Below the pieces are notes generated by a model. The model was not told the origin of the DNA, searched no databases, and saw only the letters and a list, made by a program, of their open reading frames with translations. This document shows positions 7,153 through 19,477 of a stretch of DNA of 21,295 bases, piece by piece. This DNA comes from a virus: positions 1 to 21,295 of IMG/VR virus record IMGVR_UViG_3300027788_000102. One strand, written 5' to 3'. The position numbers and the translations under genes are program-made. Positions within the stretch are counted from its first letter, which is position 1. Each line of letters begins with the position of its first letter.

Positions 7153-7584
7153 ATGCACCAAGACAGCATAACGCTTAAGGGTAATTTAAAAATTTATCTG
7201 AATAATGAATTCGTGCAAAGCGCATCAAACCTCGTTGTGACAACCGGAAAAGAATTTGTTGCCAGTCGCATGGTGGGCAGCGCAGCCGCTCTTATGAGTC
7301 ACATGGCAATAGGCACAGGCACAACAGCACCAGCTGCCGAGAACACAACCGCTGAGTCCGAGGTGGCAAGGGTAGCGTTAAATTCTGCATCTGCATTAAG
7401 CACCGCTGTAACGTACACCGCCCACTTTCCTGTCGGGGTGCCATCATTCGGCGGCGCAATAACTGAGTCCGTATTGTTAGACAGCGCCACGGGTGGAGCC
7501 ATGTTGTGCCGGACAGTGTTTCCAGTCGTTAATAAATTGGCAACAGACTCGCTCACTATTGAGTGGGTTGTACAGCTAAATTAA
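7153..7584 (+). CDS. Putative tail accessory structural protein
   Basis: The 143-aa product has a pattern common in phage tail regions: an N-terminal DSITLKGNLKIYLNN strand section, LVVTTGKEFVASRMVG, then MSHMAIGTGTTAPAAENT, and a C-terminal half with ITESVLLDSATGGAMLCRTV and LTIEWVVQLN. Proteins with this AIGTG-T-P-A-T-L-E-VAR plan occur beside tail fibres and are probably structural. An AGGAAA ribosome site stands before the ATG. It directly precedes the large fibre gene, with an 11-base gap to that gene's chosen ATG. The exact role is unknown. Confidence 0.68.
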   Translation: MHQDSITLKGNLKIYLNNEFVQSASNLVVTTGKEFVASRMVGSAAALMSHMAIGTGTTAPAAENTTAESEVARVALNSASALSTAVTYTAHFPVGVPSFGGAITESVLLDSATGGAMLCRTVFPVVNKLATDSLTIEWVVQLN

Positions 7585-7587
7585 AGG
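7583..7587 (+). promoter_or_regulatory. Ribosome binding site that decides the fibre start at 7596
   Basis: AAAGG lies eight bases before ATG 7596. The frame is also open from GTG 7563, but that start overlaps the previous gene and lacks a site. Confidence 0.7.
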
Positions 7588-7595
7588 TTTCTAAG

Positions 7596-9722
7596 ATGGC
7601 TTTAAAATTCTCCAACAACGCGACTACAGTTTTAGCACAGAGTCTTTTGGCTGAAAATTTAACTGTACAGTGTGTAAGCCTAACGTCCTTTCCGACACTT
7701 GGGGTTGATGATTACACCTATGCGACCTTAGCAAAATTAGACAGCCCAACAGACATGGAGATTGTAAAGGTTACCGGAATCTCAGGCAGCACAGCGACAG
7801 TTGAGAGGGGACAGCAAGGCACGACAGCTCTCGATTTTGTTGCCGGCAGTCTGTTTGAGCTGCGTCTAACTGCTGGTTCATTAGATGACTTGGCCGGTGA
7901 TATTACCACGGTTGCCGCTGCGCTCTATGGTCTTGGACCAGTTGTCGCAGCAAATACCGCAAAGGTGACATACACCAACCTCCTTCCATTAGACAACACA
8001 TGGACAGCACTCAACACGTTCACTGCTGGCCTAGAGAGCACAGGCGCAGGCGCTAACAGCTTCCGAGCTGGATTTAATTCTGGAGCTACTACGCAGGGCG
8101 CAACCGCTGTAGCTGTTGGTGACTCAGCAGGCCAAACTGCACAGGGATCTAACGCTCTAGCTCTAGGTAGGAAAGCTGGAACTACATCGCAGGGAATAGC
8201 CTCTGTTGCTATCGGAAACTTCTCAGGTAACAGTGGTCAGCTCAACAACGCAGTGGCTATAGGTAGCGGCTCAGGCCAGACTACACAGGGAACAAGCGCC
8301 GTAGGTATAGGTGTCAGTGCTGGTAACAATACGCAGGGCGCAAGCGCTGTAGCTATAGGGAACCAATCCGGTCTGACTACGCAGGGAACAGGCGCAGTCG
8401 CTATAGGAGAGTCAGCAGGAGGCACTGCACAAGGCAACTACGCTGTAGCCATCGGTAGACACACTGGCCTGTCTAATCAGGCAGGGACAGCCACCGCAGT
8501 TGGATACCAAGCAGGTTCCACGGATCAGGGTTCACGCTCTGTTGCTCTGGGATACCGAGCAGGACAAACCAGCCAAGGCAACAACGGCATCATCATCAAC
8601 GGCACTGGTGTTGCACTAGATGATGCCACTAATGGTCACATCCACATAGCTTCTAGTTTAGCCTCTTTAGACTACGACACGGCAAATGGCAAATGGACTG
8701 CCACAGACACTACTGGCGCGTTTGATCTTCGTCCAGACGTCGACCCCCAAATAGCTATTAACACATCTGCTATTGCTCTCAATACAGCCAAGGTGGGCAT
8801 AACTGTAGGACAGACGGATGCCATTGTAGCGAACACCGCTAAAATCAGCTATACCGATGCAGCGGCAGTTGCGCTTAATACAGCCAAGGTGGGCATAACT
8901 GTAGGACAGACGGATGCCATTGTAGCGAACACCGCTAAGGTGACATACACCGATTTACTACCGCTAGGCAACACATGGGCTGGACTCAATACGTTTACCG
9001 CTGGGCTGAGAAGTGAAGGAGCTGGCACTGACTCTGTAAGGATTGGCACTGATGCAGGGTTAACAAGTCAGGCGAACACATCAATAGCAATTGGGAAAGA
9101 GTCTGGCAAGTCAGGCCAAAAAACTGGAGCGTTGGCTATCGGCAATAACGCTGGTTTTTCTAACCAAGGCCAAAAAAGTTTTGCGCTCGGCTTGCAAGCA
9201 GGAAAAACCGACCAAGGGAATTTTTCCATTGCAATTGGAAACAGTGCAGGAAAAACAAGCCAAGGAGACAAAGGGGTTATTATATCAGCAAATAGCGTAG
9301 CCCTTGAAGATACCACAGACAGCCATATACACATAGCAAGTGACGAAGCCTCTATCAATTACACCTCTGCGGCTGGGTTTAGTGTGACCTCTACCGTTAC
9401 GGCAGCAAACAAGTTTACCGCGGCAGCATATTATCTTGCTGGTGCAGGAGGTGCGGCAGGAAGTGTAGTTGGATACTACGGCCTTAGAATTTACAGTATG
9501 AACGGTGATTATTTCTGGGCAGCAAACACAACGCCAGCGTCATACGCTATGCAGCTAGGCTCGACCACAGGAAATCTTGCCCTACTTGGAACATGCACAG
9601 CCACAAGTTTTGTAGGAAGTGGGTCGGCATTAACAGGGCTGTTAAACTTAGCAGATTTAAAAACACTCGTTGCAGCAAGCGCAGACTTTGCAGACTTTCA
9701 GACTAGAATAGCAGCACTATAA
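7596..9722 (+). CDS. Long tail fibre with YadA-head-like repeats
   Basis: The 708-aa product (start ATG 7596) is probably a trimeric fibre. Residues 1-110 form a small beta-rich attachment domain of a kind seen in many phage fibres (ATVERGQQGTTALDF). From about residue 163 come ten full 16-residue units plus a partial one, of the form G-x-T-x-Q-G-x-x-A-V-A-I-G-x-x-A. This is the left-handed beta-roll repeat of YadA-type trimeric adhesin heads. A linker with HIHIASSLASLDY follows. Then comes a short helical part with two near-identical 32-residue units (ALNTAKVGITVGQTDAIVAN), and a second array of four such 16-residue units plus a partial from about 488, ending in HIHIASDEASINY. The C-terminal 130 residues are Ala/Gly-rich. 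No peptidase S74 auto-cleaving chaperone or enzymatic domain is visible. Its likely role is receptor binding or spacing. Confidence 0.85.
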   Translation: MALKFSNNATTVLAQSLLAENLTVQCVSLTSFPTLGVDDYTYATLAKLDSPTDMEIVKVTGISGSTATVERGQQGTTALDFVAGSLFELRLTAGSLDDLAGDITTVAAALYGLGPVVAANTAKVTYTNLLPLDNTWTALNTFTAGLESTGAGANSFRAGFNSGATTQGATAVAVGDSAGQTAQGSNALALGRKAGTTSQGIASVAIGNFSGNSGQLNNAVAIGSGSGQTTQGTSAVGIGVSAGNNTQGASAVAIGNQSGLTTQGTGAVAIGESAGGTAQGNYAVAIGRHTGLSNQAGTATAVGYQAGSTDQGSRSVALGYRAGQTSQGNNGIIINGTGVALDDATNGHIHIASSLASLDYDTANGKWTATDTTGAFDLRPDVDPQIAINTSAIALNTAKVGITVGQTDAIVANTAKISYTDAAAVALNTAKVGITVGQTDAIVANTAKVTYTDLLPLGNTWAGLNTFTAGLRSEGAGTDSVRIGTDAGLTSQANTSIAIGKESGKSGQKTGALAIGNNAGFSNQGQKSFALGLQAGKTDQGNFSIAIGNSAGKTSQGDKGVIISANSVALEDTTDSHIHIASDEASINYTSAAGFSVTSTVTAANKFTAAAYYLAGAGGAAGSVVGYYGLRIYSMNGDYFWAANTTPASYAMQLGSTTGNLALLGTCTATSFVGSGSALTGLLNLADLKTLVAASADFADFQTRIAAL
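8082..8600 (+). repeat. First array of 48-bp (16-aa) fibre repeats
   Basis: Ten units of exactly 16 codons begin at 8082, with a partial eleventh at 8562. The protein pattern is well kept (AVAIG, SQG or TQG), while DNA between units is diverged, so this is a coding repeat array and not a recent expansion. Confidence 0.85.
8781..8938 (+). repeat. 62-bp exact direct repeat, 96 bp apart
   Basis: Bases 8781-8842 are identical to 8877-8938. The 96-bp spacing is 32 codons, so the frame is kept. The repeated part encodes ALNTAKVGITVGQTDAIVAN, a small helical or coiled-coil unit. The identity shows a recent duplication, in contrast to the diverged arrays on each side. Confidence 0.9.
9057..9290 (+). 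repeat. Second, shorter array of 16-aa fibre repeats
   Basis: Four full units of 16 codons start at 9057, followed by a partial unit (GKTSQGDKGVI). They follow the same protein pattern as the first array but use different DNA. Confidence 0.8.
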
Positions 9723-11892: not shown

Positions 11893-13626
11893 ATGGCTGC
11901 GGTTAATGTCAGCTTATTTCGCGGGATGTCAAAAAAAATATCACCGCGCCTCCTTCCGGAAGACATGGCGGTTAGCTGCATCAATGTTGATTTGGACGCA
12001 GGCTCACTGCGGCCTATAAAAGGGCTAAGCACCAGTGTTACTCTGCCAAGTGTGCAAGGAGGGGTTGGCACGGCTAGTTATAGTGGTAGTACCAAGACCT
12101 TCTTCCAGAGCCGTGATAACGTATGGTTTACGTTTTCTGGATCGAGCGCCAGCGTAATAGATGGCCCAGTGGCAGAGGATGCATATAAACGAGTATATTT
12201 CAGTAACTCTGTTGGCGCATATGTAGCTAGTACCGTAAGCGGAAGTGCTTTCACTAATTATCTTCTTGGTGTGCCTGCGCTGCCTACCGCTCCATCATCC
12301 GCACAAATTCCAGTTGTCTCTGCCACTACAGACACTGAAACAGCTGTCTCTCGATCCTATGTTGTGACCTGTGTAACGGCATGGGGTGAAGAGGGTCCGC
12401 CCTCTCCTCCTTCTGCAATTCTTGACACTAGGTCGGATCAAGCGGTAACAGTTTCTCTCACAGCCTTACCGGCTAATATCAACAATCGAAATATCGTGTA
12501 CTACAGAGTTTATCGAACTGATGCAAATGGCGTTTTTCGATATGCCTTTCAGGTAAGCGCGCTTTCCGCTACCAGTACCACTGATACTGTACTGGAATCT
12601 GCCTTGGGAGAAGAGCTTGTCTCTCAAGAGTGGGACCAACCTCCTCAATTGACCCTCACCGATTACGGTCTTTCCGGAATATGCTCTTTGCCCAACGGTA
12701 TTACTGCGGGATTTACTGGGCAAACTGTTTGTTTTTCGGAATCTTTTCTGCCGCATGCTTGGCCCAAAAGATATCAGCTAACAACGCAGGCCAAAATTAT
12801 TGCGCTCACACCTTTAGAAACGGGCTTGCTCGTTATGACAGAGGGTCAACCATATATTGTGCAGGGTTCAGATCCGGCGGGCATGGTTATGACAGAGCTA
12901 AATGTACCTTACCCCATTGCTAATGCCGAATCGGCGGTTAATGTCGGTGGTTCCGTTATCTATTGCAGCCAAGATGGGCTTGTCAGTGTGAGTTCTGCTG
13001 GAGCCGCTCTAGTGACGGAGACTATATTTACCCGCACAGACTGGCAGGCGGCACATTCCCCTGCCACCGTCCAAGGATTTGAGTGGGAAGGGAAGTATGT
13101 GGGATTTCATACTACCTCTGGAGCAATCAATGGATTTATTTTTGATCCGAGAGGGGGGAAATCGGCATTCACTGCTCTTGAGCTGGATGATTCCGTTACG
13201 GCGGCTTTTTCTTCATCACAAAATAATGAGCTGTATGTGATTACTAACGGAACCGTCAAAAAATTTGCACAGGGGTCTCATCTGCGCTGCACATGGTTGT
13301 CCCGCCATTACTTCTCTGATCGTGCCATAAACATGGGTGTCGCACAGATTGCTTTTGGCGAGAATTTAGGCCAAGTATCAGTTGTTACAGATGGCGCAGG
13401 CGCACACTTAAACGACACCGTAATATTATTTTCCGCCAGTGAAAACACGGACGTATTTGCCTTGGCAGACGTCAGGCATATCGAATATAGAGCGGCGGGG
13501 GGTGACGGGATACATACTTTCCGCCTTCCAAGCGGGTATAAAAGCCATGTCTCTTCTTTTCAGATATCAACAAAGGAGGAAGTTCACTCTATTACTATGG
13601 CTGAAAGTCCGGCGGAACTGAGATGA
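11893..13626 (+). CDS. Large beta-rich tail or neck structural protein
   Basis: The 577-aa product begins VNVSLFRGMSKKISPRLLPE, which with the following NVDLDAGSLRPIKG is a well-known start of a phage structural family (the F-GM-P-x-x-S-R-L-P pattern) of unsettled function. Near residues 150-250 is an FN3-like domain with YVVTCVTAWGEEGPPSPPSA and YYRVYRTDANGVFRYAFQVS. The second half has repeated short strands such as LPNGITAGFTGQTVCFSESF and VIYCSQDGLVSVSSAGAALV, consistent with a propeller-like fold. AAGGAG six bases upstream gives a strong start. It directly precedes the J-like fibre, with a 4-nt ATGA overlap, so the two are probably co-translated and may assemble together. Confidence 0.75.
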   Translation: MAAVNVSLFRGMSKKISPRLLPEDMAVSCINVDLDAGSLRPIKGLSTSVTLPSVQGGVGTASYSGSTKTFFQSRDNVWFTFSGSSASVIDGPVAEDAYKRVYFSNSVGAYVASTVSGSAFTNYLLGVPALPTAPSSAQIPVVSATTDTETAVSRSYVVTCVTAWGEEGPPSPPSAILDTRSDQAVTVSLTALPANINNRNIVYYRVYRTDANGVFRYAFQVSALSATSTTDTVLESALGEELVSQEWDQPPQLTLTDYGLSGICSLPNGITAGFTGQTVCFSESFLPHAWPKRYQLTTQAKIIALTPLETGLLVMTEGQPYIVQGSDPAGMVMTELNVPYPIANAESAVNVGGSVIYCSQDGLVSVSSAGAALVTETIFTRTDWQAAHSPATVQGFEWEGKYVGFHTTSGAINGFIFDPRGGKSAFTALELDDSVTAAFSSSQNNELYVITNGTVKKFAQGSHLRCTWLSRHYFSDRAINMGVAQIAFGENLGQVSVVTDGAGAHLNDTVILFSASENTDVFALADVRHIEYRAAGGDGIHTFRLPSGYKSHVSSFQISTKEEVHSITMAESPAELR

Positions 13627-16487
13627 TTAGCCTCAAGGGTTCCCGCAGAAAAAGCACAGCCACTGTCCCACGCGAGTTTACGGGGCAGGAGAGGATTTTT
13701 GCAGATTCTTTGGTGGAGAGCATTGATTCTTTGGCGGGTCGGCGTGGCGAACCAATAGATAGGGCTGTGACTTTTAGGGATTTATTAGATGCGAATGTTC
13801 TGTCGCTTGCGGCGGGGCAGCCCTTGTCGAATGCTGGGGGTGTAAATCTAGTAAACCCTTTGGACCCGACTACGAGTGTTGGCGGGGGTGTTGAGATTCC
13901 CCCTGCGCCTAGCATACAGATCATTGGTGGCTTCGGCTTTGTTCGTATCACATGGGTCATGCCTGTCTACAGAGGGGCGGCATATCTGGAAATATACAGA
14001 TCGCAGACCGACCTTCTTTCCACCGCAGTTTCAGCTGGGCCTATTGTCCGGTATTCAGGATCAGGTAGTGGCTTCTACGATGACAGAACTGTGGGGGAGG
14101 GTACGACCTATTACTACTGGGCGCGAGGCGTAAACATAAACGAAGTTGCTGGTCCTTTCAATCTTTCAGCAGGCACTAGCGGAACAACTCCTTTAAACTA
14201 TATTTATGTGTCGGGTTTAATCGATGACATTCTGGCCGATGCCGTCAATGCACTCGGATTAAATACGGTAATCTCTGGGGTAACCGGCGACATCAGCAGC
14301 ATCAACGCCGACATCGCCGGCATCACCGCCAGCATCATCGTCATCAACGGCGACATCAGCAGCATCAACGCCGACATCACCGGTATCAACACTGACATCG
14401 GCAACATCGAATCCGACATAACCGCACTCAACGCTATTAATACTTGGGATTCCGCTGTGACATACGCGGTCGCCGATTTAGTGACTTATCAAAACTATAT
14501 CTGGGAAGCGGCTCTAGCTTCCACAAATCAAGCTCCGGCAGCAGGAAGCACATACTGGACGCAAGTAGGGAGTTACGCGCGCCTAGTTGATTTTGTTTCT
14601 GCGACCCAAGGCCAGAACAGCTCGACCCGCGCAACGCTGACCAGTGATTACTACACCAAGACTGATGCTAATTCAGCGATTACCGCTTCTATAGATGCTT
14701 ACACTTCAGCGGTTACTGGTGCTGGTGGCTACACCAGTGACGCTAATGCAACCACTATTATTTACACTAAGGCTGACGCTGATTCAGCGACTACCGCTGC
14801 TATAGATGCTTACACTTCAGCGGTTACTGGTACTGGTGGCTACACCAGTGCCGCTAATGCAAACACTGTTATTTACACTAAGGCTGACGCTGATTCAGCG
14901 ATCACCTCTGAGATTAATGACTTTGCTTCAGCGGTTACTACCCCTGCTGGCTACACAGACGCTGGTGTAACCACTATTATTTACGCTAAGGCTGACGCTG
15001 ATTCAGCGACTACCGCTGAGATTAACAGCTTTGCTTCAACGGTTACTACCCCTGCTGGCTACACAGACGCTGGTGTAACCACTATTATTTACGCTAAGGC
15101 TGACGCTGATTCAGCGATTAGCACCGCGCTAAATACTTACACTACAACAATAGGAGCTAACACAGCAACCCTTCAGCAAACGGCTGAATCTCTTAATGGC
15201 ACACAGGCAAAATATTCAGTCAAGATAGACAATAACAATCATGTGTCTGGCTTTGGCTTGATATCGACAGCCAATGACGCTACCCCATATTCTACGTTTG
15301 TAGTTGCGTCTGATGCCTTTGGTATTTCCGCGCCAACCACAGCCAACAGCGCTACTGACACTGCTGTAGGGGTAGGCTATCCTTTTAAGGTTATTACCAC
15401 CCCTACAACCATTAACGGGGAGGTCATCCCTGCGGGGACGTATATCAATGACGCCTTTATTCATAACGCCCAGATTACTTCGGCGACTATAGGTGTGGGA
15501 ACAATTACCACGGCCAACATTACTGAAGGCGCTATAACGTCTGCAAGTATTGCTGACTCTATCTATAGCGCTAACTGGTTTGCCAGCGGAAATTCAGGCG
15601 CTGCTTCAGGCGTTGGATGGAATATTAATAGCGCTAACGGCTATGCTTTTTTTCAAAACATAGTTTGCAAGGGAATCATTCAGGCAACCGCTCTAATACT
15701 TTCCGCCGGAGCAGAAGTACGCACACTGCAAATCGCGGGCAATGCAGTGACGGTTCCAACTTTTATTACGTTTACATTCCCTGCGTATTCTGTAAATTCC
15801 AGCAACTATAGTACCCCTGTAGACGCTAGCGGGAATGCGACAGCACGAACGTATGTTCGCGCATCAGGGGGGCGACTGTTGGTCACCTGTGTTTTTGGGG
15901 TGAAGACCAACACCACCTCGGACAGTGTTACGCCAAACCTTTACGCTAAGTTAAAAGTCGGGAACTCAACAACGCAATATAACGCTAACTTGGGATCTTC
16001 AGAAACTCACGTTAGTGTTCCACAAAACGGTTCAACCGAAGTTAATATTCGCGTGACGGCTACGCTGGCAGTAACAACAAGCAGTAATCATGGCACCGCA
16101 GATGCTGACGAAAATTACGAAACTACCCCTACACTCTTGATTAATGGGGCATTGAGTTTGAGTGCAGCTTCGTTTTCTACATACAGCAATTACACTAATT
16201 CGGCTTATTTTGGAGACCCAAATTATCAAAACTCTCAAATGTATCAGTGCAAGATAATACATCCCTCAAATCCAGCCATCTTTGAAAACGTACAGGTCAC
16301 AAACAGAGCCGGTTACACCTTTATGGTCTATCGCGGCTCTCCCCGCCAAGAATTTCCGAATGCCGCTAAGCTCACATATCCGGCTGCGGCCTTTGCCAAC
16401 GATCGGGTGAGTATAGAATTGCAAGTTTCTGGGAATAATAGCCAATTAACTGCCTGTAATTTCACCGTAATAAGTTGTAAGAGGTAA
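13623..16487 (+). CDS. Tail fibre or host-specificity protein with J-like centre
   Basis: The 954-aa product is a multi-domain fibre. After a Ser/Thr-rich N-terminus comes an FN3-like domain (about 93-189, ending YYWARGVNINEVAGPFNLSA). A coiled-coil-like stretch with Ile at 3-4 residue steps follows (about 217-270, SSINADIAGITASII). Residues about 273-320 look like a carbohydrate-binding module of the CBM5/12 (chitin-binding-like) type, WDSAVTYAVADLVTYQNYIW. Then come about four and a half 36-37-residue repeats (YTKADADSATTAAIDAYTSA; about 340-502). A DUF1983-like section, found in the centre of lambda J proteins, spans about 502-646 (YSVKIDNNNHVSGFGLIS). The last 300 residues are beta-rich and probably hold the receptor-binding tip. 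Finding a J-like centre without siphovirus tail genes points to module exchange. Confidence 0.82.
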   Translation: MISLKGSRRKSTATVPREFTGQERIFADSLVESIDSLAGRRGEPIDRAVTFRDLLDANVLSLAAGQPLSNAGGVNLVNPLDPTTSVGGGVEIPPAPSIQIIGGFGFVRITWVMPVYRGAAYLEIYRSQTDLLSTAVSAGPIVRYSGSGSGFYDDRTVGEGTTYYYWARGVNINEVAGPFNLSAGTSGTTPLNYIYVSGLIDDILADAVNALGLNTVISGVTGDISSINADIAGITASIIVINGDISSINADITGINTDIGNIESDITALNAINTWDSAVTYAVADLVTYQNYIWEAALASTNQAPAAGSTYWTQVGSYARLVDFVSATQGQNSSTRATLTSDYYTKTDANSAITASIDAYTSAVTGAGGYTSDANATTIIYTKADADSATTAAIDAYTSAVTGTGGYTSAANANTVIYTKADADSAITSEINDFASAVTTPAGYTDAGVTTIIYAKADADSATTAEINSFASTVTTPAGYTDAGVTTIIYAKADADSAISTALNTYTTTIGANTATLQQTAESLNGTQAKYSVKIDNNNHVSGFGLISTANDATPYSTFVVASDAFGISAPTTANSATDTAVGVGYPFKVITTPTTINGEVIPAGTYINDAFIHNAQITSATIGVGTITTANITEGAITSASIADSIYSANWFASGNSGAASGVGWNINSANGYAFFQNIVCKGIIQATALILSAGAEVRTLQIAGNAVTVPTFITFTFPAYSVNSSNYSTPVDASGNATARTYVRASGGRLLVTCVFGVKTNTTSDSVTPNLYAKLKVGNSTTQYNANLGSSETHVSVPQNGSTEVNIRVTATLAVTTSSNHGTADADENYETTPTLLINGALSLSAASFSTYSNYTNSAYFGDPNYQNSQMYQCKIIHPSNPAIFENVQVTNRAGYTFMVYRGSPRQEFPNAAKLTYPAAAFANDRVSIELQVSGNNSQLTACNFTVISCKR
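14285..14378 (+). repeat. 31-bp exact direct repeat in the coiled-coil part
   Basis: Bases 14285-14315 equal 14348-14378, 63 bp (21 codons) apart. They lie in a 99-base run, 14283-14381, where all 33 codons end in C. Both encode GDISSINADI. Confidence 0.85.
14640..15125 (+). repeat. Tandem 108-111-bp fibre repeats
   Basis: About four and a half in-frame units of 36-37 codons, each starting with Y-T/A-K-x-D-A. The last two full units are very close: 14921-15009 and 15029-15117 differ at one of 89 bases, with 78 consecutive identical bases (14932-15009 and 15040-15117). The earlier units are more diverged, so growth by unequal recombination is likely. Confidence 0.85.
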
Positions 16488-18769: not shown

Positions 18770-19477
18770 GTGACATTATTAGCATCAGGAAACAATCTTC
18801 GCCAGCAAAGCTTAATGGGCCTGCAAGCCCTGTCTCAAGAAGACGCTGAGCGAGAAGCGCTCTATGAGCAAATGAAGCAAGCGAAAAGCCAGAAAGACGC
18901 GCAGACCAAAGGCACGGTCGGTGGCATCGGTGCGGCGTATCTTATAAACCAAGGACTGCCGGCTGCAACCACGACTGTTAGCTCTGTCCCAGTATCGGGT
19001 ACTGCCTCCGGTGTAGGTTCGGCCTCGCAATCTTCGACACTAGTCGGACAAACCGCCTTGCAAGCCAGCCAAGCTAAGGCAGCTGTCGATGGAGCGACAA
19101 TCATGGGAGCGCAGGCGGGAGGGACCGGCGGTGTTGCTGGCACTGCTAGTGGTGTTGGTGGTGTTGCTGGTACTGCTGGAACTACTGCGGCTGGGACTGC
19201 GGCTGGGACTGCTGCTGGAACGACTGCTGCCGGTGGTGTTGCTGGTGCTGCTGGAACTGCTGCTGCTGGAACTGCTGCTGGAACTGCTGCCGCGACTGGA
19301 ACTGCTGCTGCTGGAACTGCTGCTGCTGGAACTGCTGCCGCGACTGGAACTGCTGCTGCTGCCGCCGGAGGAGGGGCCGCTGCCGCCGGAGGAGGAATGG
19401 CTGCTCTCGCAGCAGCGACCGGACCACTGGCAATTGGCATTGGTGCTGCTTTCTTACTTTCATCGCTGTTCGGCTAG
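18770..19477 (+). CDS. Gly/Ala/Thr-repeat protein with a C-terminal membrane segment
   Basis: The 235-aa product starts at GTG 18770 with AGGGG nearby upstream. Residues 1-60 form a charged helix (SLMGLQALSQEDAEREALYE, then QMKQAKSQKDAQTKGTVGG). From about 116 to 218 it is almost only Gly, Ala, Thr and Val (GTAAAGTAAGTAAATGTAAA). The last 25 residues are hydrophobic (ATGPLAIGIGAAFLLSSLFG), like a membrane-inserting segment. Its place among internal-protein genes suggests a protein that is ejected and inserts into or crosses the host membrane, which is speculation. The repetitive DNA also gives long open frames on the other strand and in another frame; these are shadows. Confidence 0.72.
   Translation: MTLLASGNNLRQQSLMGLQALSQEDAEREALYEQMKQAKSQKDAQTKGTVGGIGAAYLINQGLPAATTTVSSVPVSGTASGVGSASQSSTLVGQTALQASQAKAAVDGATIMGAQAGGTGGVAGTASGVGGVAGTAGTTAAGTAAGTAAGTTAAGGVAGAAGTAAAGTAAGTAAATGTAAAGTAAAGTAAATGTAAAAAGGGAAAAGGGMAALAAATGPLAIGIGAAFLLSSLFG
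19120..19400 (+). repeat. GC-rich Gly/Ala/Thr codon repeat region
   Basis: Short repeats of GCTGCTGGAACT-type units make up most of this stretch. The largest exact copy found by eye is 42 bp: 19272-19313 equals 19320-19361, offset 48. The region is a likely site of slippage and of assembly error. Confidence 0.85.

What the first reader, a model, noticed from the sequence alone, without database searches (positions are those of the whole stretch)
14283..14381. Run of 33 consecutive codons that all end in C
From 14283 to 14381 every third base is C. Isoleucine is always ATC there, while the flanking fibre DNA favours T or A at third positions. It coincides with a 31-bp exact repeat in the coiled-coil part. 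It may be a recently acquired or expanded cassette from a high-GC source, or under selection at the DNA or RNA level.
Basis: seen in the sequence. Interest (0 to 1): 0.55.

Follow-up and report, generated by a model that had tools for sequence, protein, structure and literature searches.

The report
Duplicated coiled-coil repeat in phage fibre
A phage tail-fibre gene carries a short array of near-identical seven-codon units that all end in C, best explained by copying of one small coiled-coil unit; this is a known way in which phage fibres grow, although this stretch is unusually uniform.

Summary
In the tail-fibre gene 13623-16487, 33 consecutive codons (14283-14381) end in C, in a gene with 29% C at third positions. 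Independent codon choice would give this about once in 10^18; none of 794 ORFs in 120 other viral loci comes near it. The run lies inside seven in-register 21-nt units (14289-14435), each encoding one heptad, with Ile/Leu at both core positions; the segment is modelled as one confident helix. Best explanation: one C-ending heptad was tandemly duplicated inside an older coiled coil, so the codons are copies, not 33 independent choices. A high-GC donor is not supported: no matching DNA was found, and the best of 285 sampled codon usages gives only 10^-5.5. A Vibrio phage gene has a 71-codon all-T run in a 21-nt heptad array, so the phenomenon recurs. One residue remains: heptads 1-4 differ at 10 first/second positions but at no third position. 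Simple duplication plus neutral drift reproduces such a run in about 0.5% of simulations; faster amino-acid change raises it to 7-14%. Ordinary in kind, extreme in degree.

The parts
13623..16487 (+). tail-fibre gene (954 aa) that contains the run
   Evidence: PHROG tail fiber families phrog_37064 6e-22, phrog_19394 7e-19, phrog_496 2e-17; Pfam PF09327 Phage_Tail_Tip 2.5e-5, above its cut-off, residues 518-688
14283..14381 (+). run of 33 codons ending in C
14289..14435 (+). array of seven 21-nt (seven-codon) units, h1-h7
   Evidence: TRF period 21, 7.0 copies, 14288-14434; units listed
14289..14309 (+). heptad h1 DISSINA, identical to h4
14310..14330 (+). heptad h2 DIAGITA
   Evidence: 4 differences from h1, none at third positions
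14331..14351 (+). heptad h3 SIIVING
   Evidence: 6 differences from h1, none at third positions
14352..14372 (+). heptad h4 DISSINA, exact copy of h1
14373..14435 (+). heptads h5-h7 DITGINT DIGNIES DITALNA, more mixed third bases (6 third-position differences from h1)
14285..14315 (+). first copy of the 31-bp exact repeat
14348..14378 (+). second copy of the 31-bp exact repeat
14220..14288 (+). upstream stretch, also modelled as mostly helical, with mixed third bases, next to which the array sits
   Evidence: codons; helix; coil reading is inference
14652..15117 (+). second, unrelated tandem array in the same gene (111/108-nt units), suggests the gene grows by in-frame duplication

Best explanation
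It is a tandem expansion of one coiled-coil heptad inside a phage tail-fibre shaft. Shown: seven in-frame 21-nt units, core Ile at 13 of 14 core positions (Leu at the other), one unit repeated exactly, and a confident single-chain helix model. Inferred: a 21-nt unit that happened to use only C-ending codons (chance about 2 in 10,000 per such heptad) was copied in register by slippage or unequal recombination. The copies inherited their third bases, and outward-facing residues then changed while the Ile core was kept. The array would act as a stretch of a trimeric coiled-coil stalk whose length can change in seven-residue steps without breaking the reading frame.
For: 21-nt period, 7.0 copies; exact h1=h4. 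Seed heptad DISSINA all-C probability 2.4e-4 under window codon usage. The same gene has a second in-frame tandem array of 111/108-nt units. Helix 33-121 of the folded segment with pLDDT 97-98 over residues 41-80; the array is residues 43-91 of that segment. None of the relatives whose post-domain region was read (L003, L141, L142, L387-L395) shows this array or a same-base run longer than 17. DIxxINxDI motifs encoded in other viral contigs have no such run (80 of the 120 fetched loci examined, longest C run near the motif 6), so the protein motif does not force C. Independent parallel: Vibrio phage 489E54-1 gene with a 71-codon all-T run built on the 21-nt unit VDAAYAA, and a relative with conserved flanks, a rearranged array and a 33-codon T run. 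Prophage fibre coils whose lengths differ by multiples of seven are described in PMC3368898 (passages); codon homogeneity as a mark of slippage in PMC1557989 (passages).
Against: h2 and h3 differ from h1 at 10 first/second positions and no third position. Simulated duplication plus neutral drift at the observed divergence gives a run of 31 or more in about 0.5% of cases (0.3-9% over the neutral settings with 35 or more conditioned cases). Faster surface amino-acid change (dN/dS 4-10) gives 7-14%. No close relative with a different copy number was found, so expansion was not seen directly. Trimerisation was not modelled.
Confidence: 0.75

Rival explanations
1. The segment was imported from a phage or bacterium with strongly C-ending codons (high GC) and has not yet adapted.
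For: The run is 61% GC against 48% for the rest of the gene; all-C is less improbable under high-GC codon usage than under the window's own.
Against: No DNA match in phages or plasmids beyond two weak unrelated hits; the specific all-C heptad pattern hit 0 viral contigs, and a slightly shorter one hit 12 genome contigs, none read as a fibre coil. Best codon usage among 285 loci still gives 10^-5.5. The C-run shares register and sequence with the neighbouring mixed-codon heptads h5-h7.
Confidence: 0.1
2. C-ending codons are kept by selection on translation or RNA/DNA (for example uniform decoding of a stalk while it folds), while surface residues change freely or are diversified.
For: No third-position change in h1-h4 despite 10 other changes; third-position share low in both arrays, pooled 10 of 45, one-sided p 0.07. 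The Vibrio parallel also keeps T through rearranged codons.
Against: C bias fades in h5-h7 and is near the gene average in the upstream helical stretch, 7 of 21 codons; the same motif in other viral contigs lacks it; none of the tests is significant after allowing for post hoc choice.
Confidence: 0.1
3. Adenine-directed mutagenesis by a diversity-generating retroelement, which could alter first and second bases of AAC-type codons and leave third-position C alone.
For: The NNC codons of the run could be derived from AAC-type codons; a distant relative, Aeromonas phage phiARM81mr, carries what looks like such an element near its tail genes.
Against: No template copy in the window; differences between array copies are not limited to A; A in every ATC codon of the run is unchanged. 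The phiARM81mr variable repeat is in another gene, not in the tail-tip fibre. The rest of the window's genome is not held.
Confidence: 0.02
4. Chance or assembly artefact.
For: A metagenomic contig with repeats can be misassembled.
Against: Chance about 10^-18; the reading frame is intact through all repeats, and the units are not all identical.
Confidence: 0.03

Closest known systems
Trimeric coiled-coil stalks of phage/prophage tail fibres (PCoil domains of E. coli prophage fibres, PMC3368898, passages read)
   Same: Low-complexity heptad stretch between fibre domains; length changes in multiples of seven residues.
   Different: PCoil is Ala/Ser-rich with almost no Ile/Leu; here the core is Ile. 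Third-base uniformity was not among the passages read ('codon' occurs 0 times in that text).
Vibrio phage 489E54-1 gene VP489E541_P0030 (L140) and its relative in MG592661 (L397)
   Same: 21-nt heptad array with a single third base over 71 and 33 codons, changing between relatives with conserved flanks.
   Different: Base is T, residues Ala/Asp/Tyr/Val, gene annotated only as hypothetical protein. It was found through a BLAST hit on the opposite strand, so it is not an unbiased sample.
Coding tandem repeats of Borg elements (PMC9879509, passages)
   Same: Repeat units divisible by three, in frame, distinct codon usage inside the repeats.
   Different: Mostly disordered regions, in archaeal elements.
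T4 fibritin coiled coil (1avy, weak sequence match E 0.086)
   Same: Trimeric phage coiled coil (recalled).
   Different: Match is not significant; no homology claimed.

Membership tests
Phage tail fibre / tail tip protein | Profile match to tail fibre families | tested here: met
   phrog_37064, 19394, 496; PF09327 above cut-off
Heptad coiled coil | Seven-residue period with hydrophobic core positions | tested here: met
   13 Ile and 1 Leu at 14 core positions in seven units
Heptad coiled coil | Helical | tested here: met
   Single-chain AlphaFold2 without alignment: helix 33-121, pLDDT 97-98 over residues 41-80; the model may overextend the helix
Heptad coiled coil | Trimeric assembly | not testable with these tools
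   Only single chains can be folded
In-frame tandem repeat array | Head-to-tail units of constant length divisible by three | tested here: met
   TRF period 21, 7.0 copies, 68% matches
In-frame tandem repeat array | Copy number differs between close relatives | tested here: inconclusive
   No close relative found; relatives at 30-43% identity lack the array where the region was read
Diversity-generating retroelement variable repeat | Template copy differing only at A | tested here: not met
   No such pair involving the array in the 21-kb window; genome incomplete

The most novel reading that the evidence does not exclude
The array is a hypervariable coiled-coil stalk in which codons are exchanged or substituted in strict codon phase: first and second bases (surface residues) turn over while the third base is held constant, by codon-phased recombination among units or by selection on the third base. 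The all-T array of the Vibrio phages would be another case, making 'one third base per array' a general signature of such stalks.
Probability: 0.12. Interest if true: 0.45.

Novelty: new member of a known kind. Interest (0 to 1): 0.22.

Why it matters
Runs with a single third base are a cheap marker of young, in-frame repeat growth in phage genes. They can be mistaken for foreign DNA or codon selection; here they mostly record copying. If the third base really stays fixed while residues change, such arrays would be a natural test of how phage stalks diversify.

Tried and rejected
High-GC donor: pattern, BLAST and codon-usage tests gave no support. A tighter all-C pattern gave 3 loci: in L384 and L386 the run reads antisense to a D/V/G-rich repeat, and L385 is a short run in a GC 0.69 gene. 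One search pooled all fetched loci, including those fetched by third-base patterns, and so is not used as a background; it lists longer runs than 33, mostly homopolymer-like or Asp/Ala-rich repeats. The best BLAST hit to phages (Vibrio phage 489E54-1) lies on the opposite strand of its gene, so it is not homology, but it led to the all-T parallel. The Pantoea plasmid hit was not pursued beyond its annotation. Structure search of the helix model against viral structures returned nothing. The 'om 3' rows are no different from 'om 1' because acceptance was capped; one search replaces them. In one search only each ORF's best-scoring run is kept, so 'longest C run 8' refers to best-scoring runs. 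Of the 12 genome contigs, L128 and L133 gave no ORF of 150 codons at the match and L134 only one in another frame. The literature searches were made; only passages of PMC3368898, PMC9879509 and PMC1557989 were read, other papers only as listings.

Full report
Observation. The window is a 21,295-base virus record. ORF 13623-16487 encodes a 954-aa tail fibre in a structural module with terminase, portal/head-tail adaptor, major head protein and internal virion protein. Codons 14283-14381 all end in C: 33 in a row, where the gene has 29% and the window's 25 listed genes 23.5% C at third positions. Under the window's own codon usage the residues would all be C-ended with probability 10^-17.9. Within-gene synonymous shuffling (2000 rounds) never gave a C run above 12 in this gene nor any same-base run above 17 in the window. 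In 794 ORFs (305,650 codons) of 120 other viral loci, none scored above 5 on -log10(n p^r), against 15.0 here. A second set of 26 loci (117 ORFs, 58,001 codons) also had none above 5.

Anatomy. The run covers Thr-Gly plus the first 4.4 of seven consecutive 21-nt units (14289-14435; TRF period 21, 7.0 copies). The units read DISSINA, DIAGITA, SIIVING, DISSINA, DITGINT, DIGNIES, DITALNA. Positions 2 and 5 of each heptad are Ile (13 of 14) or Leu, a 3-4 spacing typical of coiled coils (recalled). h1 and h4 are identical, and with their flanks give the 31-bp repeat at 14285-14315 and 14348-14378. Relative to h1, changes at codon positions 1-2 / 3 are: h2 4/0, h3 6/0, h4 0/0, h5 3/2, h6 4/1, h7 4/3. 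A single-chain model of residues 181-339 gives a helix through the whole array with pLDDT 97-98 over most of it. The same gene has a second tandem array, 14652-15117, with 111/108-nt units.

Does the protein motif force C? No. In the 80 loci listed, the longest C run near the motif was 6, including repeated coils of similar GC such as L021 and L028. Many of the 80 matches lie in short frames that are probably not genes, so the number of real coils among them is much smaller.

Does a high-GC donor explain it? Not by itself. Whole-window megablast against 50,697 phage records found nothing. The array found one weak phage hit on the opposite strand of its gene and one weak plasmid hit. The all-C heptad pattern hit no viral contig (the window's own record is left out), and a slightly shorter one hit 12 bacterial or archaeal contigs, where the ORFs read look unrelated to fibres (judged by eye). 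Codon usage from 285 fetched loci gives at best 10^-5.5 for 33 C-endings, median 10^-7.5 at GC 0.60-0.65, because four-fold boxes would use G as well. Few loci above GC 0.65 were sampled. Only non-independence, that is copying, removes most of the improbability: a single all-C DISSINA heptad has probability 2.4e-4.

A parallel. Vibrio phage 489E54-1 gene VP489E541_P0030 has 71 consecutive T-ending codons in a 21-nt VDAAYAA array. Its relative in MG592661 keeps the N-terminal and C-terminal parts but has a rearranged array with a 33-codon T run. So uniform third bases over divergent heptad arrays recur, with another base and other residues. The example was met through a BLAST hit, not an unbiased survey.

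Relatives of this fibre. tblastn of the N-terminal 316 residues matches 157 phage records, all below 60% identity; viral contigs gave 5 and 3 relatives. In the 13 relative loci read, including near-duplicates, the region after the shared domain has other coils or other domains, with longest same-base runs of 5 to 17 and no comparable array (L396 is too short to show the region). No close relative was available to show copy-number change.

What remains. Simulating duplication of a C-ending heptad followed by neutral change, at the observed divergence at positions 1-2, gives a run of 31 or more in about 0.5% of cases; with surface dN/dS of 2, 4 and 10 the figures are 2.5-2.7%, 7-8% and 14%. Third-position changes are 6 of 27 in this array and 4 of 18 in two adjacent-copy comparisons of the second; pooled 10 of 45 against 15 expected, one-sided p 0.07. 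Duplication therefore accounts for most of the signal, with a weak hint of diversified surface residues or conserved third bases.

Verdict. A locally expanded heptad array in a phage fibre stalk: ordinary in kind, unusually uniform in degree. In-frame repeat growth (PMC9879509), heptad-step length changes in prophage fibres (PMC3368898) and codon homogeneity as a trace of slippage (PMC1557989) are already described; only passages of these papers were read.

Noticed in passing
window 14652-15117: Second tandem array in the fibre gene: 111/108-nt units encoding YTKADADSAI-type repeats.
   Followed up: partly
window 18770-19477: Gly/Ala/Thr low-complexity gene with a 12-codon T-ending run and many 3n-period repeats; the opposite strand is open for 192 aa (18862-19440).
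   Followed up: no
window 7563-9722: A second tail-fibre-like gene with AIGxxSG repeats and a duplicated 96-nt unit at 8773-8954.
   Followed up: no
window about 14445-14570: Directly after the coil, a W/Y-rich segment weakly like a C-terminal part of chitinase B (E about 0.08; probably its chitin-binding domain, recalled) and 52% identical over 42 aa to an Enterocloster phage protein.
   Followed up: no
L398 (Aeromonas phage phiARM81mr) 1286-1405 and 1835-1954: A 120-nt repeat pair whose 13 mismatches are all at A in the second copy, next to a gene annotated as retron-type reverse transcriptase: it looks like a diversity-generating retroelement with its variable repeat in virion gene p57; the template lies inside the annotated start of the RT gene.
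   Followed up: partly
L397 (MG592661) 425-498: Two 'CRISPR spacers' annotated in this Vibrio phage lie inside the coding heptad array (opposite strand), probably a misannotation of tandem repeats.
   Followed up: no
L129 (Muribaculaceae contig): A gene in a 37% GC contig with a 17-codon C-ending run followed shortly by a 13-codon one, without an obvious protein repeat; parts of the contig are masked.
   Followed up: no
window 14200-14460, minus strand: The array is open in an antisense frame that reads D/V/A/G residues (GNN codons), which may be why it matches the Vibrio array on the opposite strand.
   Followed up: partly
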